In this document: one piece after another, positions 5,357-59,590 of the stretch
How positions within the stretch are numbered: the stretch's first letter is position 1
Layout of the letters: each line of letters begins with the position of its first letter
NCBI RefSeq assembly: GCF_027595985.1
Contig: NC_073302.1
Coordinates: forward strand, 10,728,966-10,792,965
Source: Sorex araneus
Lineage: Eukaryota; Chordata; Mammalia; Eulipotyphla; Soricidae
Direction of reading: 5' to 3'
Length of the DNA stretch: 64,000 nt
The notes under the pieces: generated by a model
The model's database searches: none
The model's input: the letters and a program-made list of their open reading frames with translations, nothing else
What the model was told of the DNA's origin: nothing
Translations under genes and position numbers: made by a program

Positions 5357-5944
5357 AGGAAAACCCTCAGCAAAACGGGCATTGAAGGAACTTTCCTCAA
5401 TATAGTCAAATCTATCTACCACAGACCCACGGCAAGTATCATTCTCAATGGGTAAAACATAAAAGCCTTTTCTCTAAGATCGGGCACAAGGCAAGGTTTC
5501 CCACTTTTGTCACTTCCATTCAATATAGTACTGGAAGTCCTGGCCATAGCAGTTAGACAGGAAAAATATATCAAGAGCATACAGATAGGAAAGGAAGAGG
5601 TCAAGTTATCACCATATTCAATGATATGATACTATACTTGGAAAACCCTAAGGACTCTCCAGAAAAGCTCCTAGAAACAATCAGTCAATATAGTAAAGTG
5701 GCAGGCTACAAAATCAACACCGAAAAGTCCATGGCTTCCTTATATACAAATAATGAAAAAGAAGAAAGAGACATTTCAAAAAAATTCCGTTCACAAAAGT
5801 ACCTCAGAAAATCAAGTACCTTGGAATAGGCTTAGCCAAAGAGGTGAAGGATCTATACAAGAAAATAACAAAATACCACTTCAAGAAATAAAAGAGGACA
5901 CTAGGAAATAGAGACACATCCCCTAACCATGGATAGGGAGAATT
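5357..5944 (+). mobile_element. L1 LINE ORF2 fragment, plus strand
   Basis: This is reverse-transcriptase-domain sequence in plus orientation, including residues such as MILYLENPK followed by NTEKSMASLYTNNE (frame at 5626-5829). It matches 56268-56851 in direct orientation. Several stops and frameshifts make it non-functional. Its last 11 bases (5934-5944, TAGGGAGAATT) are the left target-site copy for the RTE insertion that follows. Confidence 0.8.
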
Positions 5945-6228
5945 CACTTCTATCACTTTTCATCCTGTTGATCTTTGATTTGCTCAAGCAGGCACCAGCA
6001 TCGGCAACTATCGCCCAATCCACCTCTTGTCCAACATCTACAAGTTGTTCACTCGAGTCATCCTGAATAGAATAGGCAGAACACTAGACAAAAGACAGCC
6101 ATGCAAGAAAGCCGGATTCCAAAAAGGATTCAGCACGATTGGCCGTATTCACAAAGTGACCAAGCTCATTGAAGTTTCACAAGAGTTCAAGATGCCACTC
6201 AATCGTCCATCAATTATAAGAAAGCCTT
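5945..6228 (+). mobile_element. RTE-clade retrotransposon fragment, 5'-inverted, truncated by an L1 (copy M1)
   Basis: The first ~50 bases are the reverse complement of the shrew-SINE-like 3' tail (TTTGCTCAAGC followed by a GCACC box). The rest (about 5993-6228) reads in plus orientation as RTE reverse transcriptase with GNYRPIHLLSNIYKLFTRV, then LNRIGRTLDKRQPC and KAGFQKGFSTIGRIH. These residues match the RTE-1 family of nematodes as I know it and differ clearly from the L1 motifs nearby. At 6228 the reading is cut by GC-rich L1 5' UTR, whereas M3 continues for about 630 bases more. Confidence 0.8.
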
Positions 6229-6470
6229 CGGGTCCCGCCTCCCGATCCGCTCTCCAACTGCGGCCTGCCCACCCCGGTACCGTCATTGCCACTTGGCCAA
6301 GCCCTCCCGTCCCCTGATTCCCGCCGATCGGGGTCCCAGACCTCCTCCTGCAGCTGCCCCGCCCCGTGTCTTGTGCGTCCCGCCTGGCTGTCTAACAGGA
6401 AGACACTGGGGGCGTGGCCTGTATCTTAGGGGGCGTGGTCTCAAAGTGGGCGTGCCTCCTGTCGGCCTTT
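6229..6470 (+). promoter_or_regulatory. L1 5' UTR / internal promoter, GC-rich
   Basis: This is the only conspicuous GC- and CpG-rich stretch in an AT-rich window. It begins sharply after RTE sequence and precedes L1 ORF1 by about 200 bases, as an L1 5' UTR does. It contains three similar boxes around GGGGGCGTGGCC (near 6408, 6430 and 6447). L1 5' UTRs carry an internal RNA polymerase II promoter; the boxes as factor sites are inference. No other L1 in the window reaches this region. Confidence 0.65.
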
Positions 6471-15942: not shown

Positions 15943-15958
15943 AAATAAGGAATTTTTC

Positions 15959-22171: not shown

Positions 22172-22197
22172 TAGTTGACCTTAAATAAGTAAATTAA

Positions 22198-22230
22198 CTT
22201 CTCTCAGCCTTGAAACAAGGCTGAGGGAAG
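22198..22230. repeat. Conserved 15-bp-arm hairpin (B1)
   Basis: CTTCTCTCAGCCTTG and CAAGGCTGAGGGAAG form a stem with one mismatch and a 3-base loop. Copies at 30583-30615 and 61739-61771 keep the same pairing. It sits just 5' of the unidentified open frame. Confidence 0.8.
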
Positions 22231-23059
22231 TATGCTTAAGATAATGATTTCTTTCATTATAAGTATTTTATTACTGTTTTATTAGATCATGCAAGCTCAG
22301 AAACACAGGTGCACAATACATGTCTAATGCTCTAATAAACTTCGCATATTTTAGTACAAGATCACTAAATAGCTTAGTCACTGCTATTGTCAGAATTGAT
22401 AGTGATTAATGGAGCTGCCAACTGATTAACATATTCTTCATTTGTTAACTTTTGTGTTACCTACACTGTCCTCACACAGCAGCACAGCTATGTGACACAA
22501 CATTCAGGAAATCTTCAGCACGATAATATCCTCACCCTAGTTAACAATACAAACACACGTTATTTCTCAGAGGCAGATAGGAACATCATCCATACCGCTC
22601 AGAAAGGTTCTATGTATACGATCCTTCTCAAGGTTCCCTTAAACATACTTTCTTCAACTTACCCCTTCCCTAGTTGTTATGATACATGAATATGATCATC
22701 AGTGTAAAAGAAACTTCTTTATTATATCTGCTAAAATAATGCAATTTGGCAGAAGTTATAAAATTAACTTCCCCCTCACTCCCCCTATCAGGTCGCACTA
22801 TCTTGAGACATCAGGAGCAGTACTGGGATGCCAGATTCTCAATTGTGGCTGGTTTGGTCCACAAAAAAGTTCTGCTGAGTTCTCAACACTGATGCCTCTT
22901 ACTTGATGCTATTTATTTTATTTCTTCTAGTTGTTTTCATGAAAAGAGGACGATAATAGAGAGAAAAGATTTCACTTAGCTCAAATCTTTGTTTTATTTT
23001 ATTTGTATAGCAAAGACTGTAGAGAAAATTTCGTGGAATGACTAATTATATCAAATTAC
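22231..23059. repeat. Module B1 inner part, no gene seen
   Basis: Matches 60905-61735 inversely and, from about 22826, 304-544 directly. Module B2 breaks off just inside this part: 30524-30560 joins sequence matching about 22260 to L1. Short frames are not conserved beyond what the duplication itself explains. Confidence 0.6.
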
Positions 23060-24374
23060 ATTTTTAAAAACTGAATCTCAGTGAGATACACAGTTACAAA
23101 TTTGTTTATGATTCAATGTTACAATGTTCCATCCCCACACCTTCACAGGATTTCACTATCCAGCCAGATGTCCCCATCCCTCTCCCCCTCCCTGCATGCC
23201 TCTATGGCAGGCACTTTTCTTCTCTCTTCTGTCTTTTCTACTCTATTTCCTTTTGGGCATTATGTTTTGCAATGCAGATATTGAAAGACCATCATTTATG
23301 TCCCTTTACCTACTTTTGAAGTTTTGATTCTTGTTCAGAGAGATCATTTCTAACCATTTTTGTCATACTGATCCTTTCTCTATCCCAACTGCCTTTTGTC
23401 CCACCACCCCTCTTGTGGCAAGCTTCCAACCATTAACCAGTCCTTCTGGCCCTGGTTTGCACCTGCCTTAGATATTAGACTCATACTACTTTATTTTTTG
23501 TATTCCACAAATGAATGCGGTCATTCTATGTCTGTCCCACTCTTTTTTTATTTTATTGAATCATCGTGAGATAGTTACAAGCTTTCATGTTTGGGTTACA
23601 TTCTCACAATGATCAAACACCCATCCATCCATCTGTGCACATTTCCCACCACTGATATCCTGGGAATAACCCTACATTCGCATCTTCCCCCTGCCTCCAT
23701 GGCAGACAATATTCCCCATACTCTCTCTCTACCTTTTGCGCATTGTGGCTTTCAACATAGACACTGAGAAGTCATCATGTTTGTTCTATTATCTACATTC
23801 AGCATGCAATCCCATCCCAACTGGTTCCTCCAGCCATCATTTTCTTAGTGATCCCTTCTCTATTCCATCTGCCTTCTTCCCTCCGCTCATGAAACAATCT
23901 TCCAGCTATGGGGCAATCCTCCTGGCCCTTGTATCTACTGTCCTTGGGTGACAGCCTCATGTGTTGTTATTCTATACTCCATAAGTGAGTGCAGTCCTTC
24001 TATGTCTGTCCCTCTCTTTCTGATTCACTTCACTGAGCATGATCAACTCCATGTCTATCCATTTATAAACAAATTTCATGACTTCTGTCCCTCTCTTTCT
24101 GACTCATGTTGCAGCACGATTATTTGCATGTCCATCAATTTATATTCAAGTTTCATGAGTTCATTTTTTCTAACCAAATCACAGTATCCCATTGTGTACA
24201 TGTACCACCATTGTTTTTTATCCAGTAGTATGTTTTGAGGAATTCAGGTTATTTCTATATTCTGGATATTTTGAATTGAGTTGTAACGACCATAGAAGTG
24301 CACATGGTGTTTCTGTTGTATGTTTTTGGAGCCCCAGGGTGCATTCCTAGACATGTTATTTCTTGGTCCATTGG
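23060..24374 (-). mobile_element. Old L1 fragment with nested L1 (B1)
   Basis: Minus-strand L1 3' UTR and distal ORF2, homologous to 545-1364 and to the inverse of 59591-60900. It is interrupted by a younger 540-base L1 3' end at 23544-24083, and ends where a further L1 begins at about 24375. Confidence 0.75.
23544..24083 (-). mobile_element. Truncated L1 3' end inserted into older L1
   Basis: Direct repeats TCTGTCCCACTCT (23531-23543) and TCTGTCCCTCTCT (24084-24096) flank it, one mismatch apart. The inverse copy lies at 59886-60425 with AGAGAGGGACAGA on both sides. The site at about 1011-1027 is empty. Confidence 0.85.
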
Positions 24375-27300
24375 GAACTCATTTTTTAAAAATTTTATTG
24401 AATGACCATGAGATACTTACAAGATTTCATGTTTGGGTTACAATCTCACAATTAACAAACACCCATCCTCCACCAGTGCACGTTCCCCACAACCAATATC
24501 CCGGGTATACCCCCCTTTTTCATCCTCCCCCTGACTCCATGGTAGGCAATATACCCCATACTCTCTCTCTACTTTCGGGTATTATGGATTGCAACACAGA
24601 CACTGAGAGGTCATTATCTTTGGTCCATTATCTACTTTCGACATACATCTCCATCCCAAGTGTTTCCTCCAGCCATCATGTTTTAGTGATTCCTTCTCTA
24701 TTCCATCTCCCTTCTCCCCTCTGCTCATGAAGCAGTCTTCCAAGTATGGGACAATCCTTCTGTCCCTTGTTTCTACTGTCCTTGGTTGTCAGCCTCATGT
24801 GATGTTAATCTATACTGGACAAATGAGTGCAGACCTTCTATCTCTGTCCCTCTCTTCTGACTCATTTCACTGAGCATGATACTCTCCATGTCTATGCACT
24901 TCTAAGAAAATTTCATGACTTCATCTCTCCTAACAGCTGCATAGTATTTCATTGTGTAGATGGACCAAAATTTCTTTAACCAGTCATCTGTTCTAGGGCA
25001 CTTGGGTGGTTTCCAGATTTTGACTATTGTGAACAGTGCTGCAATGAATATATAGGTACAAATGTCATTTATACTGTTCTTTTTGTACCCTTGGGATATA
25101 TTCCCAGAAGTGGTATTGCGGGGTCATATGGCAGCAAAATTTCTGGTTTTTGAAGGACTGTCAATATTGTTTTCCAGAAAGGTTCGACCAGTCTGCATTC
25201 CCACCAGTAGTGAAAGAGTGTCCCTTTTCCCCCACATCCACGCCAGCACTGGATGGTTTTATTCTTTTGAATATGTGCCAGTCTCTGTGGTGTGACATGT
25301 TTTTCTCATTGTTCTCATGCATCTCCATGATGATTATCTATGTGCAGCATTTTTTCATGCGTCTTTTGGCCATTTGTATTTCTTTTTGAGGAAATTTTTG
25401 TTCATTTCTTCTCCCTATTTTTTGATAAGGTTGGAGGTTTTATCTTATACAATTCTACTAGTGTCTTGTATATCCTGGATATTAATCCCTTATCAGATGG
25501 GCATTGGGTAAATGTTCTTTCCCATTCTGTGGGCTCTTTCTGTATTTTGGTCACTGTTTCTTTTGAAGTGCAGAAGCTTCTTAGTTTGATGTAGTCCCAT
25601 TTGTTTATGTTTGCTTCCACTTGCATGGTCAGTATTGTTTCATCCTTAAAGATGCTTTTAGCTTCAATGTCATGGAGAGTTCTGTCTACATTTTCTTCTA
25701 TGAACCTTATACATTCATGTCTGATACTGAGGTCTTTAATCCACTTTGATCTGACTTCTGTGCCTGGCATTAGACAGATGTCAGAGTTCATTTTTTTGCA
25801 GTAGCTATCCAGGTTTCCCGGCACCACTTGTTGAAGAGGCTTTTCTTGCTCCACTTCACATTTCTTGCCCGTTTTTCAAAGATTACGTGACAATACACTT
25901 GGGGGTCTGTGACAGGATATTCACCTCTGTTTCATTGGTTTGCAGGTCTGTTTTTATCCCAATACCATGCTGTTTTAATTACTACTGCTTTGTAGTGGAG
26001 TTTGAAGTTTCGGAAGGTGATGCCACCCATCTTTTTTCCCCAAGGATTGCTTAAGCTATTCGTAGGGGTTTATTGTTTCATATGAATTTCAGGAAAATTC
26101 ATTTCTTTGAAAAATGTCATGGGTCTCGTGATAGGAAGCACATTAAATTTGTATAGTGCTTTGGGCAGTATTGGTATTTTGATAATGTTAATTCTCCCTA
26201 AGGAAGAACGGTGGAGTCGAAAAGATATGCCTGGAAAGGAGGTTTTTCGTCCTCTTAACCTCTCTTTGATGCTGTTGAAGGCGTTCCATGCAGCTATCTT
26301 CCTCCTGCACAGTTCTGGTGCCAGGACGTTCCTCATGTTCAGTTCTTGACCCTGGTACACATAGCTGTTGTATTCGGAGATGTTCATTCCATTGAGAGCA
26401 AATGGAATGTCAGGGACTAGTTCGTTCTTCATGGACATTGTTTTGCTGAGATAGCTGCAGTCTGATCTTTCCACACTCATGGTCTAAGTAGGCCAGCATT
26501 TGTGCCACTTGGCTAATGTTTGGTATTATTGGAACAATGTCATCAGCAAAGCATCGATGGTGTAGTTTTCAACCGTCTATCTTCACTTCCATTCCTTCCC
26601 ATTCCAGTAGTGGCATGATGTACTCGAGGGTGTCACCGAAGAGTTTCGGTGAAATGGTATCACCATATCAAACCCCTCTTTTTATATCAATGATCACTTT
26701 GGTGATCAGAATGGTGAGATCCTGGTGGTGAATCCATAGTACAGCTAGTGGAGGATCTTGATATACTGAGTTTGAATGCCCTTTTTGGCTAGGGCTTCAG
26801 TGACTTCTTCAGTATCAACAGAATTGAAGGATTTCTTTTAATCGATGGACGTTTGAGTGGCATCTTGAACTCTCGCAAAACGTCAATGAGCTGGGTCACT
26901 TTGTGGATACGGCCAATCGTGCTGAATCCTTTTCAGATTCCGGCTTTCTTGCATGGTTCTTTTTCGTCTAGTGTTTTGCCTATACTATCCAGGATGACTC
27001 GAGTGAACAACCAGTAGATGTTGGACAAGAGGTGGATTGGGCGATAGTTGCCAATGCTGGTACCCGCTTGAGCAAATCAAAGATCAACAGGATGAAAAGT
27101 GATAGAAGTGAATTCTCCCTATCCATGAGCAGGGGATGTGTCTCTATTTCCTAGTGTCCTCTTTTATTTCTTGAAGTGGTGTTTTGTTATTTTCCTTGTA
27201 TAGGTCCTTCACGTCCTTGGCTAAGCCTATTCCAAGGTACTTGATTTTCTGAGGTACTTTTGTGAACGGAATTTTTTAAATGTCTCTTTCTTCTTTTTCA

Positions 27301-28835
27301 TTATTTGTATATAAGGAAGCCATGGACTTTTCGGTGTTGATTTTGTAGCCTGTCACTTTACTATATTGACTGATTGTTTCTAGGAGCTTTTCTGGAGAGT
27401 CCTTAGGGTTTTCCAAGTATAGTATCATATCGTTGAAAATGGTGATAACTTGACCTCTTCCTTTCCTATCTGTATGCTCTTGATATATTTTTCTTGTCTA
27501 ACTGCTATGGCCAGGACTTCCAGTACTATATTGAATGGAAGTGACAAAAGTGGGAAACCTTGCCTTGTGCCTGATCTTAGAGAAAAGGCTTTTAGTTTTT
27601 ACCCATTGAGAATGATACTTGCTGTGGGTCTGTGGTAGATGGCTTTGACTATATTGAGGAAAGTTCCTTCAATGCCCATTTTGCTGAGGGTTTTCCTAAT
27701 AAGCGGGTTTTGAATCTTGTCAAATATTTTCTCTGCTTCTATTGATAAGATCATGCAGTTTTAATTATTTCTTGTATTGATATGATGAATTATGCTGATT
27801 GACTTGCGAATGTTAAACCATTCTTGCATCCCTGGGATGAATCCTACTTGGTCATGGTGTATGATCTTTTTGATGAGTCGTTGGATTCTATTTGCTAAAA
27901 TTTTGTTGAGGATCTTTGCATCTGTGTTCATCAGGGATATCAGTCTGTAATTCTCTTTCTTTGTGGTATCTTTGTCTGGTTTTGGTATCAGGGTGATATT
28001 TGCTTCATTGAAACTGTTTGGATGTGTTTCTGATACTTCAATTTCCTGGAAAAGCTTAAAGAGGATTGGGAATAAGTCCTCTTTAAAGGTTTGGAAGAAT
28101 TCACTAGTGAATCCATCTGGGACAGGACTTTTGTGCTTGGGGAGACTTTTTATTACCGTTTCAATTACCTTGACAGCAATAGGTCTGTTCAGGTATTCCA
28201 GGTCTTCTTGGTTCAATCTTGGGAGGCTATAGGAGTCTCGGAATTTATTCATTTCCTCGAGGTTTTCGTGTTTCGTGGTATAAAGTTTCTCAAAGTATTC
28301 TCTGAGGATACTTTCTGGAATTTCTGTTGTAATGTCCCCCTTTTCATTTTTGAACACTGTTTACTAGGGTTTTCTCTCACCCTTTTTGTGAGTCTTGTTA
28401 GAGGTTTATCGACCCTGTCTATTTTCTCAAAGAACCAGCTCTTCGTTGATCTCTTCGATTATTTTTTTGGTTTCCTTCTCGTTAATTTCTCCCACTAGTA
28501 TTGTGTTGCTCTCGATGTCTTTCTCCAATCTATAGTAGTTGTTTTAAGTACTTTGCTGGTCTCTCATTAGGTGCATATGGATTTAGTATTGTTAGTTCTT
28601 CTTATTGCACAGATCCCTTTATCAATAATAAATGACATTTACTGTCTCTTGTGACATTCTTCAGTCTGAAATCAATGAGGTCTGATACTAGAATGGCAAC
28701 CCCAACATTTTTATGGGAGTTATTCGCCTATAGAATTTTTTTCCAGCCTTTGACTTTGAGCGTGTGTTTGCTTTGACTGTTGAGATGTGTTTCTTCAAGG
28801 GAGCAGAATGTTGGGTACAATTTTCTAATCCATCC
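24375..28835 (-). mobile_element. L1 LINE of module M2, minus strand, with RTE insertion
   Basis: The 3' UTR begins at about 24384 (T-rich) and the element runs through ORF2 into the endonuclease domain, ending at about 28835 against a plus-strand L1. ORF2 fragments include the minus-strand frames 25402-25854 and 27761-28357, the latter with [20 protein letters not shown] of the reverse transcriptase. It is interrupted at 26201-27110 by the RTE insertion. The inverse copy is M3, 55127-59590. Multiple stops rule out activity. Confidence 0.8.
26201..27110 (-). mobile_element. RTE-clade insertion, 5'-inverted, 11-bp TSD (copy M2)
   Basis: AATTCTCCCTA at 26190-26200 and 27111-27121 brackets 910 bases. 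The minus strand of 26201 to about 27065 encodes decayed RTE reverse transcriptase. The frame 26070-26480 carries [20 protein letters not shown] and [16 protein letters not shown], typical of the region after the RTE catalytic site; the stretch near 26520-26560 gives a decayed ADDIVPIIPN. The last ~45 bases (27066-27110) run the other way and match the SINE tail (CCCGCTTGAGCAAATCAA). It is the inverse of 56852-57764. Confidence 0.85.
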
Positions 28836-30523
28836 TGACTACAGGCCGATATTTCTGATGAATATTAATGCAAATATCCTCAACAAAATATTAGCAAATA
28901 GAATAAAAAAACTCACCAAAAAGACCATCCACCACGACCAAGTGGGATACATCCCAGGGATGCAACCATGGTTTAACAATTCGGAAGTCAATCAACATAG
29001 TGCATCATAACAACAAAAGAAAATATGAAAACCATATGATAATACCTTTTGACAAAATACAGCAACCCTTTATGATGAAAACTCTCACCAAAATGGGTAT
29101 TGACGGAACTTTACTCCGTGTTTTCAAAGCCATCTACCACAAGCTCATGACAATAATTATCCTCAATGGTGAAAAAAGATCAGGGAGAAGACAAGGATGC
29201 CCACTCTCAACACTTCTGTACAATATAGTACTGAAGGCACTTACAATAACATTTAGGAAAGGAAAAGATATTAAAGGCATCCAAATAGGAAAGGAAGAAT
29301 CAAGCTCTCACTGTTCTTACATGATATGATACTACATTTAATATATACCTCTACTAAGAAGCTCCTAGAAACAATAGTAAAGTATAGTAAAGTTCCAGGC
29401 TATTAAAACAATATTCAAAGTTCATTGCTTTCCTATACACAAATAATGAGAGAGATAAAAATGACATGAGAAAACCAAACCCGTTCACAATTATGCCTCA
29501 GAAAATCACGAACCTCGGAAGCTTAATTAAGAAGGCAAAGGAACTCTCCAAAGAAAACTACAAAATGCTACTTCATAAATAAAAGACATGAAGAAATGGA
29601 AACATATCCCCTGCTCATGGATTGGGAGACTTAACATTGTCAAAATGGTAATACTTCCCAAAGCGTTTTACAGTTTCAATGTGATTCCTATAAGGATACC
29701 CATGATATTATTCAAAGAAATGTATCAAATGCTCCTGAAATATATATGGAACAACAAACCCCCATGAATAGCTAAAGCAATTCTTGGGAAAAAAGAAGAT
29801 GGGAGGCATCACCTTCCCTAACTTGGAACTCTGCTACAAAGCAGTAATATTAAAACAGCATAGTATTGGAACAAAGACAGATCCACAGACCAATGGGACA
29901 GGGTTGAATAATCTTACACACACCCTCCAATATATGACCATCTAATCTATGATAAGGAGCAAGAGATGTGAAGTGGAGCAAGAAAAGCCACTTTAATAAG
30001 TGGTGCTGAAAAACTGGACAGCTACATGCAAAAATGGGCTCAGACCTATTCCAACACTATGCACAAAAGTCAGATCAAAATGGATTAAAGACCTCAACAT
30101 CAGATTAGAATCCATCAGGTACATTGAAGAAAGGGTCGGCAAAACCTTCCGTGACATTGAAGTTAACGGTATCTTCAAAGATGATAGGCCACTGACCAAG
30201 CAAGCAGAAGCAGAGATAAATAAATGGGACTGTCTTAAACTGAGAAGCTTCTGTATCTCAAAAGAAACAGTGACCAGAATACAAAGACAGTTTACAGGCT
30301 GGGAAATGTTCTTCACTCAATACCCATCTGATAAGGGACATCAAGGATATACAAGGCACTGGTTGAATTCTACAAGAAGAAAACATCCAATCCCATCAGA
30401 AAATAAACAGAAACTTTCTCAAAAAATAAATCCTAATGGCCAAAAGACACAGGAAAAAAAATGCTCTTCATCACTAATCATCAGGAAGATGCAGATCAAA
30501 ACAACAATGAGATATCATATCGT
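28836..30523 (+). mobile_element. L1 LINE of module M2, plus strand
   Basis: Starts within the reverse-transcriptase region ([18 protein letters not shown] in the frame at 28780-29010, then [14 protein letters not shown]). It continues to the ORF2 C-terminal region and stops inside it at about 30523, where module B2 begins. It is the inverse of about 52265-55126 but lacks the 1.15-kb retroposon: the target CTGAGCCCATTTT occurs once (30031-30043, inverse). Confidence 0.8.
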
Positions 30524-35960: not shown

Positions 35961-36944
35961 TGCTTCTGGAAGCTTGGTTTTATAGTCTCTGGATGTTGGC
36001 CATTGATAGGGTTACATGGTGCCAGGGGAAGCTTCTGGGTGTGACTGCCTAACTAGTGGAATTTCGCTTTTATAAAATGGAATCAAAGATGATTAGAAGA
36101 TTTTCAGTTAGGAAAGACAGTGGAGGAGCACTGTACCAAAACTCATACTTAATTGCATTCCTTAAAAAAATTTTGCTATTATATACTTAGTGTACTATTG
36201 ATCTAAAATAGTTATGTCTAAAAGTATTCTCTGAAGACATTTCTTAACACTGAAGTTACATCTCCACATTTCTCCACGAATACTACTAATAGTATCTCAT
36301 CCAAGAGCACATGATTTCAATACTGACCTTTGTTTTATGTTTTATGAGATAAAATAATGCACACAAATAAATTGTAGACACATATTGAGTATATTTATGC
36401 ATTAAAATGTAAAGACATAAATAACAGGTCTCTATATCATTTATACATAGATAAAAAATGAATCCCATGGTAAGGTGACCAAATGTTTTTATTTATCCTA
36501 CTTGATTGCTTTTCTTTCCTTACTGATAACTGCCGAATTTCCCTTTCATTCTATGTCATTTAAACCAAAGTTCTCTCTCTTTTTGCATCACTATCAAATG
36601 TTAATAGGGATACCCTTCCAAATCCATCACTCCAAACTATGCTAGTTTACACAAATGTTAGTAAAAATTAAGACTATGGCCTGAGTTACCAAGGCCAATC
36701 TGAGCTTTTAAGAATCAATTCTGCAAGAATAAATAAGGGCAAATTTTTAATGGACATGTATGGGACAAAACAGTGTAATGATGCTATATGCACTAGTAAT
36801 GAATATAAAGATAAAATATAGTCTAGAGTGAAAACATTTTAATTAAAAATTCCTTATTTATGACATTTTAACAACACTTAGATCTCAAAAAGAGCTCCTA
36901 GGAGCACAACAATCACAAAACAATGTGATTTTAAATGTGTTTCT
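35961..36944. repeat. Module O2, no gene
   Basis: Inverse of 15959-16849 plus the empty target of the O1-specific L1 (36845-36859). Only one arm of the O1 hairpin is present (about 36140-36165). Confidence 0.65.
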
Positions 36945-37130
36945 CTCTGTTCAGAGCAATGTTACGGTGAGTGGAGAGCTTGGTTTGCATGTATCTGACC
37001 TGGGTTTGATTCCCAGACAGACTACAATATCCCAAACACTACCTGGAATTATCACAATGCACAGAGTCGAGAGTAAGTCTTTACCATAGCTGGGTGTACC
37101 AAAAGCAAACAGAGTGAGGGAGAGAGTGAG
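36945..37130 (+). mobile_element. Old tRNA-derived SINE (O2, third)
   Basis: Inverse counterpart of 13310-13495, with GACCTGGGTTTGATTCCC (36997-37014) as the B-box-like segment in sense orientation. Confidence 0.6.
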
Positions 37131-37724
37131 AGAGAGGCAAGCCATATTCTATTTTCAACAAACAACAACAGTTCTATTAAAAATTATAGACTAGGTGAAA
37201 GGTGAAAGGTGAAAACTAAAAAATCTACAAAGTGAATGATAATGACAGAAAAGCCAAAGAAGCTACATCATAAGATAAACTTTCAGTACAATATGGTAGC
37301 AAGAGAAAGTTATGAAAACCAGGTAATTATATATATGGAAATTCATCAACATATATTTTATTAAATATATGTAACCGTTATAGGAACACAAAATTAAATA
37401 AACCATTATTGACCTACATTGAGAGGAATATTTATTCTATTACAAAAACAGAAAGTTTTAAATGAATTTACAACAACGGATGAATGATCATAAGAAACTT
37501 AAAAAGGAAATAATGGTCTTACTAGTGCATTAAAGAGATCTTAATCATATATGGATAGACTATTAAGGCAGAACATTTCATCAATAAATGGTACTTTGGT
37601 GGTGGGCAAGGCATGATAAACTTTTCTCTGAAATAATGTCATGTAAGCATATAAGAGTTTATTCTCTTGCTACCAAGGTTATGTCAATAAGTTTGTGTTT
37701 TAAAAGCAACAGACTAGGGACCAG

Positions 37725-37870
37725 ACTGGTAGTACAGCTGATTAGGTGCTTGCCTTCATGCAGCTGAGCTGGGTTCAATGCCCAGCACTCCTAATGATCC
37801 ACTGAGCACCAACAAGATTGATTCCTGAGTTCTCAGCCTAGGATTAACCCCTGAACATTACTTGTGCGTC
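37725..37870 (+). mobile_element. Old tRNA-derived SINE (O2, second)
   Basis: Inverse counterpart of 12560-12715; GAGCTGGGTTCAATGCCC (about 37767-37784) is the B-box-like segment. Confidence 0.55.
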
Positions 37871-37899
37871 CCCCAAATGAAAACAAATATAAACAACTG

Positions 37900-38085
37900 G
37901 TTGGCATAAGAGAATAGAGAGAGGGGTAGGCACTTCCTTTGCAGATAGCTGACCCAGGTTTGATCCCTGGCCCATATATGATCTCTGAAGTACCACCAGG
38001 AGACACTCCAGAGCACAGATTCAAGAGTAGGCCTGGAGCATCACCTAGTGTAGCCAACTCCATGAGCACAAAAATAAGCACCAGA
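37900..38085 (+). mobile_element. Old tRNA-derived SINE (O2, first)
   Basis: Inverse counterpart of 12345-12525; GACCCAGGTTTGATCCCTGG (about 37950-37969) is the B-box-like segment. Confidence 0.6.
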
Positions 38086-38492
38086 ATAAACTGTCTTTTC
38101 ATGGGTTTATGGAATAGTCACCAAGATAAAGCCTATGATGGGACACAAAAAAATTCTCAACAATTAAGAAAAGTGGAATTCAATCAGATAAATTTTCTGT
38201 ACTGATGAAACCACGAATCAATCATAAAAGTTTGGTTAATATATCAAAATTGTGGAGATGATATAACATGGTCCTGGACATGTATTAACTTGATTAAAAT
38301 ACATTGAGAAATTAAAAATATGCAAAAGCAAAGGAAAGTGAATGGATTGTGTCCTTAATATCTTGGGAAAATTTGCTAGGTACATGACAGGGACCTGGGA
38401 GAGCCTCTTCAACAAACGGGACAACAGGATGGATGCATTTATAAAAATTAAAAAGAATATGAATCACTCTCTACCATGCAGACAACTATCTT

Positions 38493-41400
38493 TTTAAATT
38501 TTTAATTAGTGAATCACTGTGAGCGTACAGTTACAGATTTATACATTTTTGTGCTCATGTTTCCCTCACACAAAGTTCGAGAACCCATCCCTTTACCAGA
38601 GCCCATTCTCCACCACCAGTAAACCCAGAATCCCTCCTACCCTTTCCAATCCCATCTCCACACAGCCCACCCTGCCACTGTGGCAGGGTATTCCCTTCTG
38701 ATCTCTCTCTCTAACTAGCCGTTGTGGTATGCAATAAAGGTGTTGAGTGGCCACTGTGTTCAGTCTCTAGTCCACATTCAGCCCGCATCACACTTCCCCC
38801 ACATGGCCTACGACCACATTATAGTTGGTGATCCCTTCTCTGAATTGCCCTCTCCCCAGAATGTGAGGTCAGCTTATAAGCCATGGACTAAACCTCCTGG
38901 TACTTATTTCTACAATTCTTGGGTGTTAGTCTCCTACTTTGTTATTCTATATTCCACAGATGAGTGCAATCTTTCTATGTCTGTCTCTCTCTTTCTGACT
39001 CATTTCTCTCAGCATGATACTTTCCATGCCAATCCACTTATATGCAAAACTCATGATCTCCTTTTTTCTAACAGCTGCATAGTATTCCATTGTATAGATG
39101 TAACAAAGTTTCTTCAACCAGTCATCTGTTCTAGGGCACTCGGGTTTTTACCAGATTCTGGCTATTGTAAACAGTGCTGCAATGAATTTATAAGTGCAGA
39201 TGTCATTTCGACTATACTTTTTTACTTTTCTGGGATATGTTCCGAGCAGTTGTATTGCTGGGTCAAGTGGGAGCTCAATATCTAATTTTTTGAGAATCAA
39301 CCATGTTGTTTTCCAAAAGGGCTGAACCAGTCGACATTCCCACCAGCAGTGTAGAAGGGTCCCTTTCTCCCTACATCCTCTCCAACAGCAGTTGCTTTTG
39401 TTCTTTCGGATGTGTGCTAATCTCTGTGGTGTGAGGTGGTATCTCATGGTTGTTTTGATCTGCATCTCCCTGATGATTAGTGATGTAGAGCAGTTTTTCA
39501 TGTGCCTTTTGGCCATTCGTGTCTCTTCCTTGGGAAACTTTCTGTTCATTTGTTCACAACATTTTCTGATGGGGTTGGATCTTTTCTTTTTAAGAGTTCA
39601 ACCAGTGCTTTATATAACATTGATATCAACACCTTATCTGATGGGTATTGTGTAAATAACCTTTCCCATTCTGTAGATAGTCTTTGTATTCTGATCACTG
39701 TATCTTTTGCGGTGCAGAACCTTTTTAGTTTAATGTAGTCCCATTTGTTGATCTCTGTTTCCTCTTGGTTGGTCAGTTGCGTGTCATCTTTGAAGAAACC
39801 ATTAGCTTCAATATCGTGGAGGGTTTGGCCAACCTTGTCTTCAATGTACTTTATGGTTTGTGGTCTGATGTTGAGGTCTTTAATCCATTTTGATCTGACA
39901 TATGTGCATGATGTCAGATTGAGGTCTAAGCCCATTCTTTTGCATGTGGTTGTCCAGTTATGCCAGCACCATTTGTTTAAGAGCCTTTCCTTTTCCACTT
40001 CACATCTCTTGCTGCCTTATCAAAGATTAGATGATCATATATTTGGGGTTGTGTATAGGGATATTCCACCCTGTTCCATTGGTCTACGGCTCTGCCTTTT
40101 TTCCAGTACCAAGCTGTTTTAATTGTTACTGCTTTGTAATAAAGTTTGAGGTTGGGGAGGGTGATGCCGCCCATCGTCTTTTTTCCCAAGAATTGTTTTA
40201 GCTATCCATGGGTGTTTGTTGTTCCATATGAATTTTAGTGTTCCTTGATCTGTTTCTTTGAAGAATGTCATGGGTATCCTTATAGGGATTGCGTTGAATA
40301 TGTATAATGCTCTGGGGAGTATTGCCATTTTGACAACATTGATTCTCCCTATCCATGAGCAGAGTACATGTTTCCGTTTCCTCATGTCCTCTTTTATTTC
40401 ATGGAGCAGCATTTTATAGTTTTCTTTGTAGAGGTCTTTTACTTCTTTGGTTAAGCTGAATCCGAGGTACTTGATTTTCTGGGGCACGATTGTGAATGGG
40501 ATTGCTTTATTCATGTCCCTTTCCTCTGCCTCATTGTTTGTGTATAGGAAGGCTATGGATTTTTGCGTATTGATTTTGTAGCCTGAAACATTACTGTATA
40601 AGTCTATTGTTTCTAACAGTTTCTTAGTAGAGGCTTTAGGATTCTCTAGATATAGTATCATGTAGTCTGCAAATAGTGAGAGTTTGATTTCTTCCTTTCC
40701 TATCTGGATGCCCTTAATCTCTTTTTCTTGTCTAATAGCTATCGCAAGTACTTCCAGTACTACATTGAAGAGGAGTGGTGATAGTGGGCATCCTTGTCTT
40801 GTGCCTGATCTTAGAGGAAAGGCCTTAGTTTTTCCCAGTTGAGGATAATCTTGCCATAGGCTTGTTCTAGAAGGCTTTGACTATCTTGAGGAAAGTTCCT
40901 CCAAACCCCATTTTGGTAAGGTTTTATATCATGAAAGGATGTTGGATTTTGTCAAATGTTTTCTCTGTATCTATTGATATGATCATATGGTTTTTATCTT
41001 TACTTTTGTTGATATGATGGATTATGTTGATTGATTTCCGAATGTTAAACCATCCTTGCATCCCCGGGATGAATCCCACTTGGTCATGATGTATGATCTT
41101 TTTGATGAGTTGTTGGATCCTATTTGCTTATATTTCCTTGAAAATCTTCGCATCGGTGTTCATCATGGATATTGGTCTGTAATTTTCTTTCTAATTGGTG
41201 TCTTTGTTTGCATTTGGTATTAGGGAGATGTGTGCTTCATAGAAACTGTTAGGCAGAGTTCCTATTTTTTCAATTTCCTAGAAAAGTTTGAGGAGAACTG
41301 GCAACAGGTCTTCTTGAAATGTTTGGAAGAATTCACCAGTGAAGAAACCATCTGGGCCTGGGCTTTTGTTTTGGGGGAGATTTTTGATTACAGTTTCAAT

Positions 41401-42699
41401 TTCCTAACATTGATGGGTCTATTCATGTATTTCAAGTCTTCTTTGTTCAGTCTTTGGAGATTGTAGGAATCATGGAATTCATCCATGTCTTTTAGGTTCT
41501 CCTATTTTGTGGTGTATAGACCTTCAAAGTACTCTCCAATAATCTTTTGAAACTCACTGGTTTCTGTTATTATGTCCCCTTTTTCATTTCGGATTCAATT
41601 TATTAGGGTTCTCTCTCTTTCTTTCTTTCTTTGTGAGTCTTGCTAGCGGTTTATCAATCTTATTTATTTTCTCGAAGAACCAGCTCTTTGTTTCGTTGAT
41701 CTTTTGGATTGTTTTTTTGGTTTCGATGTCATTAATTTCTGCTCTAATTTTTGTTATTTCTTTCCTTCGGTCTGCTTTGGGTTCCTTTTTCTGGTCCTTT
41801 TCTAAGGTCTTGAGTCATGAAGTCAAGCTATCTATGTGGGCCCTTTCTTCCTTCCTGAGGAATTCTTGGAGAGCTATAAATTTTCCCCTTACCACGGCTT
41901 TAGCTGCGTCCCATAGGTTTTGGTAACTTGTGTCTTCATTCTCATTTGTTTCTAAGTATCTTTTGATTTCTTTCTTGATTTCCTTCCTGACCCACTCATT
42001 GTTCAACATTGAATCGTTTAATTTCCAGGTTTTTGATTTGATTCTCCGTGTCGGTGTGTGGTTAGCTTCTATCTTCAGTGCATTGTGGTCTGAAAAGATG
42101 GTTGATACAATTTCTATTTTTCTGATTCTATTGAGGTATGTTCTCGGGCCCAGTACATGGTCTATTTTAGAAAATGTTCCGTGTTCACTGGAAAAGAATG
42201 TGTATTCTTCCTTTCTTGGAGTGTAAAGCCCTGTATAGGTCTATTAGGCCTCTCTCTTCAATTTCTTCTTTCAGAGTCAGTGTTTCCTTGTTGAGTCTTG
42301 TTATTGTCAATCTATCTAGGGGCGATAAGGCCGTATTGAAGTCCCTGACTACTATTGTGCTGTTAGTGATGTCCTCTTTGAAGTCTGTTAGGAGTTGTTT
42401 TAAATATTTACCCGGTTGTTCATTAGGAATGTATACGTTTAAGAGTGTGTTTTCTTCCTGTTGTATATATCCCTTGATAAATATAAAATTACCTTGGCTG
42501 TTCCTTGTAATCTTTTTCAACCTTAAATCTATGTTGTCGGATATCAGGATGGCCACTCCAGCTTTTTTAAGGGAGTTGTTTGCTTGCAGGATTGATTTCC
42601 ATCCTTTGACTTTGAGTCTATGTTTACTCTGTTTGTTCAGGTGTGTTTCTTGCAGGCAGCAGAATGTTGGGTTTAATTTACGGATCCATTTTGCCACTC
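38493..42699 (-). mobile_element. 5'-truncated L1 LINE with 16-bp TSD (O2)
   Basis: Minus-strand L1 of about 4.2 kb, cut just after the start of ORF2. It is flanked by TGCAGACAACTATCTT (38477-38492) and TGCAGACAATTATCTT (42700-42715), one mismatch apart. ORF2 pieces are visible at 42185-42697 (endonuclease, IRKLNPTFCCLQETHLNKQS), 40119-40661 (reverse transcriptase) and 39148-39998 (C-terminal). Frameshifts and stops separate them. The 3' junction is shared with the L1 ending at 11930. O3 has no L1 at the equivalent place (about 48565). Confidence 0.9.
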
Positions 42700-42715
42700 T
42701 GCAGACAATTATCTT

Positions 42716-46945: not shown

Positions 46946-47050
46946 AACTGATATGCCAAAAACAGTAACAAGAAATCTCACTTGGAGAAGTTACTGGTGC
47001 CCGCTTGAGCAAATTGAATAGCAACGGGATGACAGTGACAGTGATACAGT
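46946..47050 (+). mobile_element. Shrew SINE 3' part with GACAGTGACAGTGA tail
   Basis: Contains ATATGCCAAAAACAGTAACA, then GTGCCCGCTTGAGCAAATTG and ends GCAACGGGATGACAGTGACA. This is the clearest copy of the SINE tail in the window and the reference for comparison with the RTE tail. Confidence 0.8.
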
Positions 47051-48629: not shown

Positions 48630-48842
48630 AGACCAGATCAATAGCACAGCAGGTAGGGTGTTTGCCTTGCACGTGGCTGACTCAGTTTTGGTTCCTCTGT
48701 CACTCTTGGCGAGCCCAGCAAGGTACCAAGAGTATCCTGCCCACAAGGCAGAGTCTGGAAGCTACCCATGGAGTATTCAATATGCCAAAAACAGTAACAA
48801 CAAGTCTACCAATGGAGACGGTACTGGTGCCCACTCAAGCAA
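48630..48842 (+). mobile_element. Composite SINE (tRNA head, RTE-like tail), O3 only
   Basis: Flanked by ATCCTGTTGTCC at 48618-48629 and 48843-48854. The head has AGCACAGCAGGTAGGGTGTT; the body has AAGCTACCCATGGAGTATTC and ATATGCCAAAAACAGTAACA; it ends GTGCCCACTCAAGCAA without the terminal tandem repeat. O1 (about 11992-12003) and O2 have the empty site. Confidence 0.9.
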
Positions 48843-49102
48843 ATCCTGTTGTCCCATTTGTTGAAGAGGCTCTCCAAGTTCTTTATCATGTACCTAGCAA
48901 ATTTTGCCAAGATATTAAGGTGGTAATCCATTTACATTCCTATGCTTTTGCATATTTTTAATTTATCATTGTATTTTAATCATCAATTAATCTTCAGTAT
49001 CATGTTATGTCATCTCCACTATTTTGATCTCTTAACCAACCTTTCATGATTGATTTGCGGTTTCATCAGTACAGAACATTTGCCTAGTGTGAGTTCACTT
49101 TT

Positions 49103-55126: not shown

Positions 55127-58100
55127 AGGACGGATTAGAAAATTGTACCCAAAATTCAGCTCCCTGCAAGAAACACATGTCAACAGTCAAAGCAAACACA
55201 CGCTCAAAGTCAAAGACTGGAAAACAATCCTATAGGCTAATAACTCCGATAAAAAAAGCTGGGGTTGCCATTCTAGTATCAGACCTCATTGATTTCAGAC
55301 TGAAGAATGTCACAAGAGACAGTGAATGTCATTTATAATTGATAAAGGGATCTGTACAATACGAAGAACTAACAATGCTAAATACATATGCACCTAATGA
55401 GAGACCAGCAAAGTACTTAAAACAACTACTCATAGATTGGAGAAAGACATCGAGAGCAACACAATACTAGTGGGAGAAATTAACGAGAAGGAAACCAAAA
55501 AAATAATCGAAGAGATCAATGAAGAGCTGGCTCTTTGAGAAAATAACAAGGTATAAAAACCTCTAACAAGACTCACAAAAAGGGTGAGAGAAAACCCTAG
55601 AAGACAGTGTCAAAAATGAAAAGGGGGACATTACAACAGAAATTCCAAAAAGTATAATCAGAGAATACTTTGAGAAACTTTATGCCACGAAACACAAAAA
55701 CCTGAGGAAATGCATAAATTCCGAGACTCCTATAGCCTCCCAAGGTTGAACCAAGAAGACCTGGAATACCTGAACAGACCTATTGCCGTCAAGGTAATTG
55801 AAACGGTAATAAAAAGTCTCCCCAAGCACAAAAGTCCTGGCCCAGATGGATTCACTAGTGAATTCTTCCAAACCTTTAAAGAGGACTTATTCCCAATCCT
55901 CTTTAAGCTTTTCCAGGAAATTGAAGTATCAGAAACACATCCAAACAGTTTCTATGAAGCAAATATCACCCTGATATCAAAACCAGACAAAGATACCACA
56001 AGGAAAGAGAATTACAGACTGATATCCCTGATGAACACAGAAGCAAAGATCCTGAACAAAATATTAGCAAATAGAATCCAACGTCTCATCAAAAAGATCA
56101 TACACCATGACGAAGTAGGATTCATCCCAGGGATGCAAGAATGGTTTAACATTCACAAGTCAATCAGCATAATTCATCATATCAATACAAGAAATAATTA
56201 AAACTGCATGATCATATGAATAGATGCAGAGAAAGTATTTGACAAGATTCAAAACCCGCTTATTAGGAAAACCCTCAGCAAAATGGGCATTGAAAGAACT
56301 TTCCTCAATATAGTCAAAGCCATCTACCACAGACCCACGGCAAGTATCATTCTCAATGGGTAAAAACTAAAAGCCTTTTCTCTAAGATCGGGCACAAGGC
56401 AAGGTTTCCCACTAGTGTCACTTCCATTCAATATAGTACTGGAAGTCCTGGCCATAGCAGTTAGACAAGAAAAATATATCAAGAGCATACAGATAGGAAA
56501 GGAAGAGGTCAAGTTATCACCATTTACAACGATATCATACTATACTTGGAAAACCCTACGAACTCTCCATAAAAGCTCCTAGAAACAATCGGTCAATATA
56601 GAAAAGTGGCAAGTTACAAAATCAACACGGAAAAGTCCATGGCTTCCTTATATACAAATAATGAAAAAGAAGAAAGAGACATTTAAAAAATTCCGTTCAC
56701 AAAAGTACCTCAGAAAATCAAGTACCTTGGAATAGGCTTAGCCAAAGAGGTGAAGGACCTATACAAGGAAAATAACAAAATACTACTTCAAGAAATAAAA
56801 GAGGACACTAGGAAATAGAGACACATCCCCTGCTCATGGATAGGGAGAATTCACTTCTATCACTTTTCATCCTGTCTTTGATTTGCTCAAGCGAGCACCA
56901 TCATCAGCAACTATCGCCCCAATCCACCTCTTGTCCAACATCTACAAGTTGTTCACTCGAGTCATCCTGAATAAAATAGGCAGAACATTAGATGAAAGAA
57001 AACCATGCAAGAAAGCCGGATTCCGAAAAGGATTCAGCACGATTGGCCGTATCCACAAAGTGACCAAGCTCATTGACGTTTTGCGAGAGTTCAAGATGCC
57101 ACTCAATCGTCCATCGATTAAAAGAAAGTCTTCAATTCTGTTGAGACTAAAGAAGTTATTGAAGCCCTAGCCAAACAGGACATTCAAACTCAGTATATCA
57201 AGATCCTCCACTAGCTGTACTATGGATTCACCACCAGGATCTCACCATTCTGATCAACAAAGTGATCATTGATGTAAAAAGAGGGGTTAGATAGGGTGAT
57301 ACCATTTCACCAAAACTCTTCGGTGACACCCACGAGTACATAATGCCAAAACCGGAATGGGAAGGAATGGAAGTGAAGATAGACGGTTGAAAACTGCACC
57401 ATCGATGCTTTGCTGATGACATTGTTCCAATAATACCAAACATTAGCCAAGTGGCACAAATGCTGGCCTACTTAGACCATGAGTGTGGAAAGATCAGACT
57501 GCAGCTATCTCAGCAAACCAATGTCCATGAAGAACGAACTAGTCCCTGACATTACATTTGCTATCAATGGAATGAACATCTCTGAATGCAACAGCTATGT
57601 GTACCTGGGTCAAGAACTGAACATGAAAAACGACATGGCACCAGAACTGCGCAGGAGGAAGACAGCTGCATGGAACGCCTTCAACAGCATCAAAGAGAGG
57701 TTAAGAGGACGAAAAACCAAACCTCCAGTTCCAGGCATATCTTTTCGACTCCACCATTCTTCCTTAGGGAGAATTAACATTATCAAAATGGCCATACTGC
57801 CCAAAGCACGATACAAATTTAATGGGTTCCCTATCAGGAGACTCATGACATTTTTCAAAGAAATGAATTTTCCTGAAATTCATATGAAACAATAAACCCC
57901 TACGAATAGCTAAAGCAATCCTTGGGGAAAAAAAGATGGGTGGCATCACCTTCCGAAACTTCAAACTCTACTACAAAGCAGTAGTAATTAAAACAGCATG
58001 GTATTGGGATAAAAACAGACGTTGAAACCAATGAAACAGAGGTGAATATCCTGTCACAGACCCCCAAGTGTATTGTCCTGTAATCTTTGAAAAACGGGCG

Positions 58101-59590
58101 AGAAATATGAAGTGAAACAAGAAAAGCCTCTTCACAAGTGGTGCCGGGAAACCTGGATAGCTACTGCAAAAAAATGAACTCTGACATCTGTCTAATGCCA
58201 GGCATAGAAGTCAGATCAAAGTGGATTAAAGACCTCAGTATCAGACATGAATGTATAAGGTTCATAGAAGAAAATGTAGGCAGAACTCTCCATGACATTG
58301 AAGCTAAAAGCATCTTTAAGGATGAAACAGCACTGACCATGCAAGTGGAAGCAAACATAAACAAATGGGACTACATCAAACTAAGAAGCTTCTGCACTTC
58401 AAAAGAAACAGTGACCAAAATACAAAAAGAGCCCACAGAATGGGAAAGAATATTTACCAATACCCATCAGATAAGACATTAATATCCAGGATATACAAGA
58501 CACTAGTAGAATTGTATAAGATAAAACCTCCAACCTTATCAAAAAATAGGGAGAAGAAATGAACAAAAATTTCCTCAAAAAGAAATACAAATGGCCAAAA
58601 GATGCATGAAAAAATGCTGCACATAGATAGTCATCATGGAGATGCAAATCAAAACAACAATGAGAAAAACATGTCACACCACAGAGACTGGCACATATTC
58701 AAAAGAATAAAAACATCCTGTGCTGGCGTGGATGTGGGGGAAAAGGGACACTCTTTCACTACTGGTGGGAATGCAGACTGGTCCAAACTTTCTGAAAAAC
58801 AATATTGACAATCCTTCAAAAACCAGAAATTGAGCTGCCATATGACCCTGAAATACCAATTCTGGGAATATATCCTGATGATGCAAAAAAGCATAGTAGA
58901 AATGACATTTGTACCTATATATTCATTGCAACACTGTTCACAGTAGTCAAAATCTGGAAACCACCCAAGTGCCGTAGAGCAGATGACTGATTAAAGAAAC
59001 TTTGGTCCATCTGCACATGGAATACTATGCAGCTGTTAGGAGAGATTAAGTCATGAAATTTTCTTATAAGTGGATAGACATGGAGAGGATCATGCTAAGT
59101 GAAATGAGTCAGAAGAGAGGGACAGAGATAGAAGGTCTACACTCATTTGTCGAGTATAGATTAACATCACATGAGGCTGACACCCAAGGACAGTAGAAAC
59201 AAGGGACAGCAGGATTGTCCCATACTTGGAAGACTGCTTCATGAGCGGAGGGGAGAAGGGAGATGGAATAGAGAAGGAATCGCTAAAACATGATGGCTGG
59301 AGGAAACAGTTGGGATGGAGATGCATACTGAAAGTAGATAATGGACCAAACATAATGACCTCTCAGTGTCTGTGTTGCAAGCCATAATGCCCAAAAGTAG
59401 AGAGAGAGTATGGGGAAAATTGTCTACCATGGAGTCAGGGGGAGGATGAGAAAGGGGGGTATACCCGGGATATTGGTGATGGGGAACGTGCACTAGCGGA
59501 GGATGTGTGTTTGATCATTGTGAGATTGTAACCCAAACATGAAAGCTTGTAAGTATCTCATGGTGATTCAATAAAATTTTTAAAAAGGAG
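55127..59590 (+). mobile_element. L1 LINE of module M3, plus strand, with RTE insertion
   Basis: Begins in the ORF2 endonuclease domain ([17 protein letters not shown] in a decayed frame), passes the reverse transcriptase (frame 55710-56201 with [20 protein letters not shown]), is broken by the RTE insertion (56852-57764), and ends in a 3' UTR and A-rich tail at about 59590. Inverse of 24375-28835. Confidence 0.8.
56852..57764 (+). mobile_element. RTE-clade insertion, 5'-inverted, 11-bp TSD (copy M3)
   Basis: TAGGGAGAATT at 56841-56851 and 57765-57775 brackets 913 bases. The first ~45 (to about 56897) are the reverse complement of a SINE-like tail. From there the plus strand is RTE reverse transcriptase in broken frames: LLSNIYKLFTRVILNKIGRT, then CKKAGFRKGFSTIGRIHKVT (frame 56883-57170), decayed FADDIVPIIPNISQVAQML (about 57412-57465), and [20 protein letters not shown] then [20 protein letters not shown] (frame 57479-57895). 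The rest of the RTE (C-terminus) is missing between this piece and the tail. Motif order and wording are those of nematode RTE-1 elements as I recall them. Confidence 0.88.

What the first reader, a model, noticed from the sequence alone, without database searches (positions are those of the whole stretch)
56841..57775. 5'-inverted nematode-type RTE insertion whose 3' tail equals the shrew SINE tail
One 11-bp TSD (TAGGGAGAATT) brackets a SINE-like tail in one orientation and RTE reverse transcriptase in the other. The RTE end next to the junction is the upstream one (GNYRPI-type box) and the distal end is the downstream one ([11 protein letters not shown]). That is exactly the geometry of twin priming for a minus-strand element whose own 3' end is the tail. 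If so, the tail (CCCGCTTGAGCAAATC, then ACAGGATGA) belongs to the RTE. The shrew SINE with the same ending (46946-47050, 48630-48842) would then be an RTE-tailed SINE, as Bov-tA is to BovB. The wording of the RT matches nematode RTE-1, so horizontal transfer would also explain the SINE burst.
Basis: partly seen in the sequence, partly recalled or inferred. Interest (0 to 1): 0.85.

Follow-up and report, generated by a model that had tools for sequence, protein, structure and literature searches.

The report
Shrew SINE built from worm-type retrotransposon
A jumping gene, very probably one already known to be shared with parasitic worms, landed here half-inverted, and its two ends turn out to make up most of a very abundant short repeat in this shrew-like genome, so one element appears to have supplied both the engine and most of the body of that repeat.

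Summary
Window 56852-57764 is one insertion in an L1 ORF2, flanked by the 11-bp duplication TAGGGAGAATT. Position 56852-~56900 (minus strand) is the RTE's own 3' end; ~56897-57764 (plus strand) is RTE reverse transcriptase. The insertion recurs at 27121-26190 (whole) and 5934-6229 (partial) through inverted segmental duplications. In the host genome, the 30 best RT loci all have this tail, 29 at about the same distance. The RTE ORF (...WRRYWRPLEQIEDQRDYK*) runs to within about 10 nt of the element's end, so the tail is mostly coding. An abundant SINE shares this last ~70 nt, and its body is a 111-nt piece of the RTE 5'UTR: head + RTE 5'UTR + RTE 3' end, the layout of AviRTE-mobilised SINEs and like Bov-tA. 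A headless relative is also abundant. 5' inversions are frequent for this RTE (5 of 30 tail-selected loci, 5 more unassessable). Nematode kinship was not tested here; it is published for RTE1_Sar, whose identity with this element is inferred. New member of a known kind; nine literature searches found no paper on this SINE/RTE pair.

The parts
56841..56851 (+). target-site duplication, copy 1 (TAGGGAGAATT)
   Evidence: uninterrupted L1 stretches
56852..56900 (-). RTE 3' terminus (last ~50 nt: end of ORF plus terminal repeat), first cDNA
56897..57764 (+). inverted RTE segment, reverse-transcriptase domain from GNYRPI to [11 protein letters not shown]027 coordinates ~1494/1500 to 2361
57765..57775 (+). 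target-site duplication, copy 2
55475..59203 (+). host L1 ORF2 interrupted by the insertion (extent aligned to other L1 in the window)
26190..27121 (-). second copy of the same insertion with both duplications (93.3% identical), in an inverted duplicate; keeps the tail AAAGATCAACAGGATGA
5934..6229 (+). third copy, broken off after 296 bp (duplication, tail and part of the RT); keeps the intact tail and one duplication
46946..47050 (+). 5'-truncated SINE copy: end of the RTE 5'UTR block (ATATGCCAAAAACAG) plus RTE 3' end reading LTWRSYWCPLEQIE*QRDDSD
48630..48845 (+). SINE copy with head, RTE 5'UTR body and RTE 3' end

Best explanation
The finding is a single twin-primed (5'-inverted), 5'-truncated insertion of an RTE-clade LINE into an older L1. 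The LINE is very probably RTE1_Sar, the element published as shared by shrew and strongylid nematodes. Its 3' end was reverse transcribed from the first nick for ~50 nt; the second nick primed on the same RNA ~420 nt further upstream and copied ~865 nt of RT sequence in the other direction; the two cDNAs were joined, losing the stretch between them. The tail therefore belongs to the RTE. The same genome holds a very abundant SINE that is a head with a pol III-like B box, joined to RTE nt ~101-211 (5'UTR), a 7-nt spacer, and the RTE's last ~70 nt (end of the ORF and terminal repeat). The RTE protein presumably recognises that 3' end in both RNAs and mobilises the SINE in trans. Shown: one site, both RTE pieces, shared 3' end, shared 5'UTR, direction (the shared 3' end is RTE coding sequence). 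Inferred: twin priming as the process, trans-mobilisation, identity with RTE1_Sar, nematode origin.
For: Single TSD and uninterrupted L1 stretches. RVT_1. RTE loci end in this tail: 29 of the 30 best at the same distance, the 30th after an inversion; 30 of 30 by tail. In a 30-copy alignment agreement is mostly 20-30 of 30 through the terminal repeat and then about 8-20: the element ends there. Intact window tails carry RTE-type letters AAAGATCAACAGGATGA..AAGTGATA and score 44 to RTE against 30 to SINE tails. The SINE: 19 of 20 copies chosen by body sequence carry the tail; body = RTE 101-211 at 90%, tail = RTE 3083-3153 at 87%. An inverted RTE block abuts the 3' block in 13 of 60 loci (5 of 30 tail-selected, 8 of 30 RT-selected); in all 9 where its outer end lies inside the locus, that end falls +36 to -792 nt from the 3' block's start. 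L066 and L068 keep 11- and 9-nt shared strings at their ends. A TSD of 11 bp fits the 10-12 bp peak stated for RTE elements (PMC4245944, passages).
Against: No nematode or Repbase sequence was available, so neither the name RTE1_Sar nor nematode kinship was tested on sequence. RTE and SINE tails are alike, so a SINE-RNA/RTE-RNA chimera is not logically excluded for this one insertion. No microhomology is seen by eye between the overhang and the RTE at the second priming site. The whole 5'UTR block was found in line in only 1 of 20 upstream stretches fetched (L105), in part in another (L096), and joined to the ORF start in L012, L023, L029 and L031. SINE TSDs were weak: 5 of 20 share a string of 9 or more against 8% of cross-locus pairs, and two of the five are a simple repeat (L071) and SINE sequence (L079). 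The inverted locus L055 showed no TSD. Neither ARAGORN (L004) nor Rfam (5 loci) calls the SINE head a tRNA. The tail hairpin is ordinary for the RTE (z +0.3).
Confidence: 0.92

Rival explanations
1. Chimera: the first cDNA was made on SINE RNA and the second overhang primed on a separate RTE RNA, so the tail in the window is SINE, not RTE.
For: SINE and RTE tails share ~87% over 70 nt; snRNA chimeras with RTE-like LINEs are reported in anole (PMC4476161, passages).
Against: The intact window tails have RTE-type letters (AAGATCAA, AAGTGATA) rather than SINE type (ATGAGCAA, GACAGTGACAG), and all three window copies score higher to RTE than to SINE tails. Same-element inversions are common here.
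Confidence: 0.04
2. Two independent insertions: a 5'-truncated SINE or RTE tail landed in L1 and an RTE fragment landed next to it later.
For: Both element types are common in this genome.
Against: One TSD brackets both pieces, no inner duplication was seen, and other L1 stretches show a single uninterrupted site.
Confidence: 0.02
3. Reverse direction: the shrew SINE is older and the RTE took its 5'UTR and 3' end from it.
For: Sampled SINE copies are more diverged (mean 17%) than sampled RTE copies (7%).
Against: The shared 3' piece is the in-frame C-terminus of the RTE ORF with its stop, which a SINE is unlikely to donate. The window RTE copies are about 15% diverged, so older RTE copies exist. 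The RTE 5'UTR continues on both sides beyond the SINE piece.
Confidence: 0.03

Closest known systems
RTE1_Sar (Dunemann and Wasmuth 2019, PMC6542046; abstract, Results and Discussion read)
   Same: RTE LINE highly abundant in the common shrew and found in nine strongylid nematodes; the window RTE is abundant in a shrew-type genome.
   Different: Sequence not compared (none reachable). The word SINE does not occur in the paper's main text; inversions were not searched for there.
AviRTE and its SINEs, e.g. ManaSINE1 (Suh et al. 2016, PMC4844689; passages read)
   Same: RTE shared by nematodes and a vertebrate; SINEs with a promoter head plus a bipartite tail made of a 5'UTR fragment and the 3' end of the RTE. 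The same design as here.
   Different: Different host (birds); 3'UTR ~40 bp and 5'UTR ~800 bp. Here there is almost no 3'UTR and the shared 3' piece is coding sequence. Sequences not compared.
Bov-tA and Bov-A2 with BovB (PMC3747384 Table 1, passages)
   Same: A tRNA-headed SINE and a SINE whose 5' part is the 5' end of the LINE, comparable to the headed and headless families here.
   Different: Different RTE family and host; the mammal part of that table lists no shrew pair.
Sor / Sorex SINE (name in PMC8466645, primers in PMC8608897 Table 1; passages)
   Same: Shares the ~65-nt head at 92-94%; the published forward primer GATTCCCAGCATCCCATATG occurs in L100.
   Different: That SINE has another body and an A-rich end (e.g. 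L095); the SINE here has the head joined to RTE sequence. That the two published names are one family is recalled.
Twin priming of human L1 (Ostertag and Kazazian 2001, known through PMC4245944 passages)
   Same: Inverted 5' block abutting the 3' block within one TSD.
   Different: [quoted passage not shown] here an RTE element shows them often.

Membership tests
RTE-clade LINE | RT domain of non-LTR type | tested here: met
   RVT_1 E=8.5e-28 in genome copy L017 and 2.4e-14 in the window composite; 10 PDB sequences match, best are R2 proteins, LINE-1 ORF2 among them
RTE-clade LINE | APE-type endonuclease in the same ORF | tested here: inconclusive
   1 of 4 endonuclease-side stretches (L026:367-966) hits Exo_endo_phos at E=1.9e-4, below the curated cut-off; 3 of 4 no hit
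RTE-clade LINE | very short 3'UTR ending in short repeats, not poly(A) | tested here: met
   stop codon lies in the ACAAGTGAT repeat, element ends ~10 nt later; the expectation itself is recalled
RTE-clade LINE | phylogenetic placement among RTE reverse transcriptases | not tested
   no RTE reference set reachable
RTE1_Sar | sequence identity to the Repbase entry | not testable with these tools
   Repbase not held
RTE1_Sar | abundant in a shrew genome | tested here: met
   136 of 136 scored loci E<1e-116, 43,451 first-look candidates; 397 and 514 exact tails of two subfamilies. The host is called a shrew from its SINEs, the record is unnamed
RTE1_Sar | close relatives in strongylid nematodes | not testable with these tools
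   no nematode sequence held; scans of viral and bacterial/archaeal contigs found no relative
RTE-mobilised bipartite SINE | 3' end shared with the partner LINE | tested here: met
   87% over 70 nt; 19 of 20 body-selected copies have it
RTE-mobilised bipartite SINE | 5'UTR fragment of the LINE in the body | tested here: met
   90% over 111 nt; whole block in line with the ORF in L026/L105 (1 of 20 upstream stretches, part in L096), 5' end joined to ORF start also in L012, L023, L029, L031
RTE-mobilised bipartite SINE | pol III promoter head (tRNA) | tested here: inconclusive
   B-box-like GGTTCGATTCC by eye (recalled motif); no ARAGORN or Rfam tRNA hit
RTE-mobilised bipartite SINE | TSDs | tested here: inconclusive
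   12-nt duplications in L069 and L076, 9 in L073; 5 of 20 at 9 nt or more, two of them doubtful
Twin-primed insertion | single TSD around inverted 5' block plus 3' block | tested here: met
Twin-primed insertion | second priming site at or upstream of the first cDNA's end | tested here: met
   window: 2361 against ~2779-2785 in L027 coordinates; 9 of 9 assessable genome loci within +36 nt or upstream
Twin-primed insertion | microhomology at the second priming site | tested here: not met
   TSD end and RTE sequence beyond 2361 do not pair by eye; microhomology is usual, not obligatory (recalled)

The most novel reading that the evidence does not exclude
A nematode-derived RTE has founded in shrews, independently of AviRTE in birds, a whole set of non-autonomous repeats made of its two ends (headed and headless), with more than ten thousand exact word matches each; and this RTE makes 5' inversions at roughly one in five insertions, a property reported almost only for L1. 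The repeated birth of head + 5'UTR + 3'-end SINEs after RTE transfer would be a rule of how invading RTEs are parasitised.
Probability: 0.6. Interest if true: 0.6.

Novelty: new member of a known kind. Interest (0 to 1): 0.5.

Why it matters
It ties an abundant repeat of a mammal to a LINE that is very probably the one published as shared with parasitic nematodes: most of the SINE's length, including the last codons of a transposon gene, comes from that element. With AviRTE it would be a second case in which an RTE shared by vertebrates and nematodes spawned SINEs of the same bipartite design, so one can ask why that design recurs. It also offers many natural 5' inversions of a non-L1 LINE in a mammal, useful for testing whether twin priming depends on the element or the host.

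Tried and rejected
Scans for relatives outside the host genome led nowhere: viral contigs with the RT and with the C-terminal 158 aa, genome contigs with the latter: no confirmed relative; these scans need exact peptide words, so they are weak tests. ARAGORN on L004 and Rfam on 5 SINE loci gave no tRNA. A conserved tail hairpin was considered; MFE z is -1.8 for the SINE and +0.3 for two RTE tails, so it is not claimed. The chimera, double-insertion and reverse-capture readings were set aside for the reasons given. A regex scan timed out without output and was replaced by BLAST. Three tail-selected loci (L054, L056, L061) seemed to start at one element position, but with other references gives different starts, so I drop that as an alignment effect.

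Full report
What is in the window. The interval 56852-57764 lies between two copies of TAGGGAGAATT (56841-56851 and 57765-57775). The flanks are L1 ORF2. Joining the flanks with one duplication gives a sequence that aligns without a gap at the join to five other L1 stretches in the window (15872-15052, 9671-10492, 40755-39934, 29233-30034, 54728-53929). These are partly duplicates of one another. A sixth hit across the join (26215-25790) is the flank of the second insertion copy and is not counted. Much of the window consists of inverted duplications of 90-94% identity (19959-30043 against 64000-53920, 15943-22273 against 36859-30540, 36845-42701 against 13584-7742, 13605-15941 against 11932-9602). 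The insertion is therefore present three times: 56841-57775, 27121-26190 (93.3% identical, both duplications) and 5934-6229 (broken). It most simply predates the duplications. The second and third copies keep 4 nt of tail that the first has lost.

The two pieces. The plus-strand piece is RTE reverse transcriptase, from GNYRPI to [10 protein letters not shown]. The minus-strand piece in the second copy is GGTACCCGCTTGAGCAAATCAAAGATCAACAGGATGAAAAGTGATAGAAGTG.

Test in the host genome. The window lies in a 2.406-Gb assembly of 65 contigs. I take it for a Sorex-type shrew because it carries the published Sorex SINE primer sequence; the record is unnamed. The RT query gave 43,451 first-look candidates, of which 136 were scored, all with E<1e-116. 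Of the 30 best, 29 have the tail 353-459 bp (mostly ~410) downstream of the RT match, and the thirtieth (L034) has it after an inverted block. A 30-copy alignment of the region reads ...ALARDRDKWRRYWRPLEQIEDQRDYK*, with the stop inside an ACAAGTGAT repeat; column agreement is mostly 20-30 of 30 through that repeat and then falls to about 8-20, which marks the element's end. From the other side, 30 loci chosen only by an exact 33-nt RTE tail (first 30 of 397, all on contig C1) all have RTE sequence running into the tail. So the tail is the RTE's 3' terminus, and nearly all of it is coding.

Tail of this insertion: RTE or SINE? Against 29 RTE tails (L034 left out), 20 short-SINE tails and 16 long-family tails, the best scores of the two intact window copies are 44, 30 and 28-29 of 52; for the damaged copy 32, 21 and 21 of 45. 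Shuffled queries reach at most 18. RTE scores exceed SINE scores (Mann-Whitney p 7e-5, 1e-5 and 2e-4; the sequences are related, so only indicative). By its letters the insertion is nearer the subfamily with GATGACAAGTGA (514 exact tails) than that with GACTACAAGTGA (397).

Twin priming. In L027 coordinates the inverted piece covers ~1494/1500 to 2361 and the tail starts at 2779-2785, so ~420 nt between them are missing. I then mapped 60 RTE loci on one contiguous genomic copy (L105+L026). An inverted RTE block abuts the 3' block (within 12 bp) in 5 of 30 tail-selected loci (L040, L055, L062, L066, L068; L046, L047, L060, L065 and L067 run to the locus edge and cannot be judged) and in 8 of 30 RT-selected loci (L009, L010, L011, L016, L020, L023, L031, L034; six others, L017, L019, L026, L033, L035, L037, run to the edge). 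L012 has an inverted block after a 331-bp gap and is not counted. Where the outer end of the inverted block lies inside the locus (9 loci), it is +36 to -792 nt from the start of the 3' block, as twin priming predicts; in L011, L023, L031 and L040 the block reaches the edge. Of 24 tail-selected RTE loci tested for duplications (6 of 30 left out because the element or its inverted block reaches the edge), 17 have a shared string of 8 or more against 6.7% of cross-locus pairs, among them L066 (11 nt) and L068 (9 nt); one of the 17 (L049) is a SINE-head word and doubtful, L055 has none, and L062 was tested at its inner boundary only. RTE TSDs are said to peak at 10-12 bp, and 5' inversions were seen almost only with human L1 in one assay study (PMC4245944, passages).

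The SINE. Twenty loci (the first 20 listed) chosen by a 32-nt body sequence without the tail (10,864 exact copies genome-wide) were fetched; 19 of 20 carry the tail directly after the body, L085 does not. Their consensus has three parts: a ~65-nt head shared with the other Sorex-type SINE; nt 64-174, 90% identical to RTE nt 101-211; and nt 182-249, 87% identical to RTE nt 3083-3153. The middle part is RTE 5'UTR. It stands whole and in line upstream of the ORF in L026/L105, which is 1 of 20 upstream stretches fetched; L096 has part of it, and most copies are 5'-truncated or inverted. The same 5' end joined to the ORF start is also seen in L012, L023, L029 and L031. A second family joins RTE ~107-298 to RTE ~3078-3153; a 25-nt piece of it has 12,828 exact copies. 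Of 16 fetched loci (the first 16 listed), BLAST shows the 5' piece upstream in 14 (not L114, L124), the 3' piece in 15 (not L122, whose letters nevertheless show it), and no adjoining head in any. Some members end in (GAT)n. The exact SINE tail word occurs 3,584 times. Reversed-pattern controls are 0 in all six pattern counts.

Age. Mean divergence from own consensus is 6.6% for 23 tail-selected RTE copies (7 of 30 left out for lack of upstream sequence), 17.4% for 19 SINEs (L085 left out) and 13.9% for 16 long-family copies; the two longer window copies are at 14.8% in the RT region against 7.2% for the 30 RT-selected loci, whose consensus they are measured against. All samples were chosen by exact or best matches, so these are rough. 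They suggest that the window insertion belongs to the SINE-active period and that the RTE stayed active later.

Known context. RTE1_Sar is published as shared by Sorex araneus and nine strongylid nematodes, with nematode origin favoured (PMC6542046); the word SINE does not occur in its main text. AviRTE, shared by birds and filarial nematodes, mobilises SINEs with a head and a bipartite tail of 5'UTR and 3'UTR pieces (PMC4844689, passages). Bov-tA and Bov-A2 with BovB are similar (PMC3747384 table, passages). The shrew pair is not in the mammal part of that table, and nine answered literature searches did not find it. I therefore call it a new member of a known kind, with the caveat that Repbase, Dfam and SINEBase were out of reach.

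Noticed in passing
window 7742-64000: Much of the window is a stack of inverted duplications at 90-94% identity (19959-30043 with 64000-53920; 15943-22273 with 36859-30540; 36845-42701 with 13584-7742; 13605-15941 with 11932-9602), rich in L1.
   Followed up: partly
window 6229: The third insertion copy breaks off at 6229 into a GC-rich sequence (GGGTCCCGCCTCCCGATCC...) where the other two copies go on with RTE, probably a duplication breakpoint.
   Followed up: no
L109-L124: The headless RTE-derived family comes in several subtypes, some with a second 5'UTR-like unit upstream (L109, L111, L123) and some ending in (GAT)n (e.g. L121, L122), which may point to an older RTE subfamily with another terminal repeat.
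   Followed up: partly
L029:1141-2837: An RTE copy with its 5' end (1-352) joined directly to position 1822 on, an internal deletion of the kind that could have led to the SINE-like derivatives.
   Followed up: no
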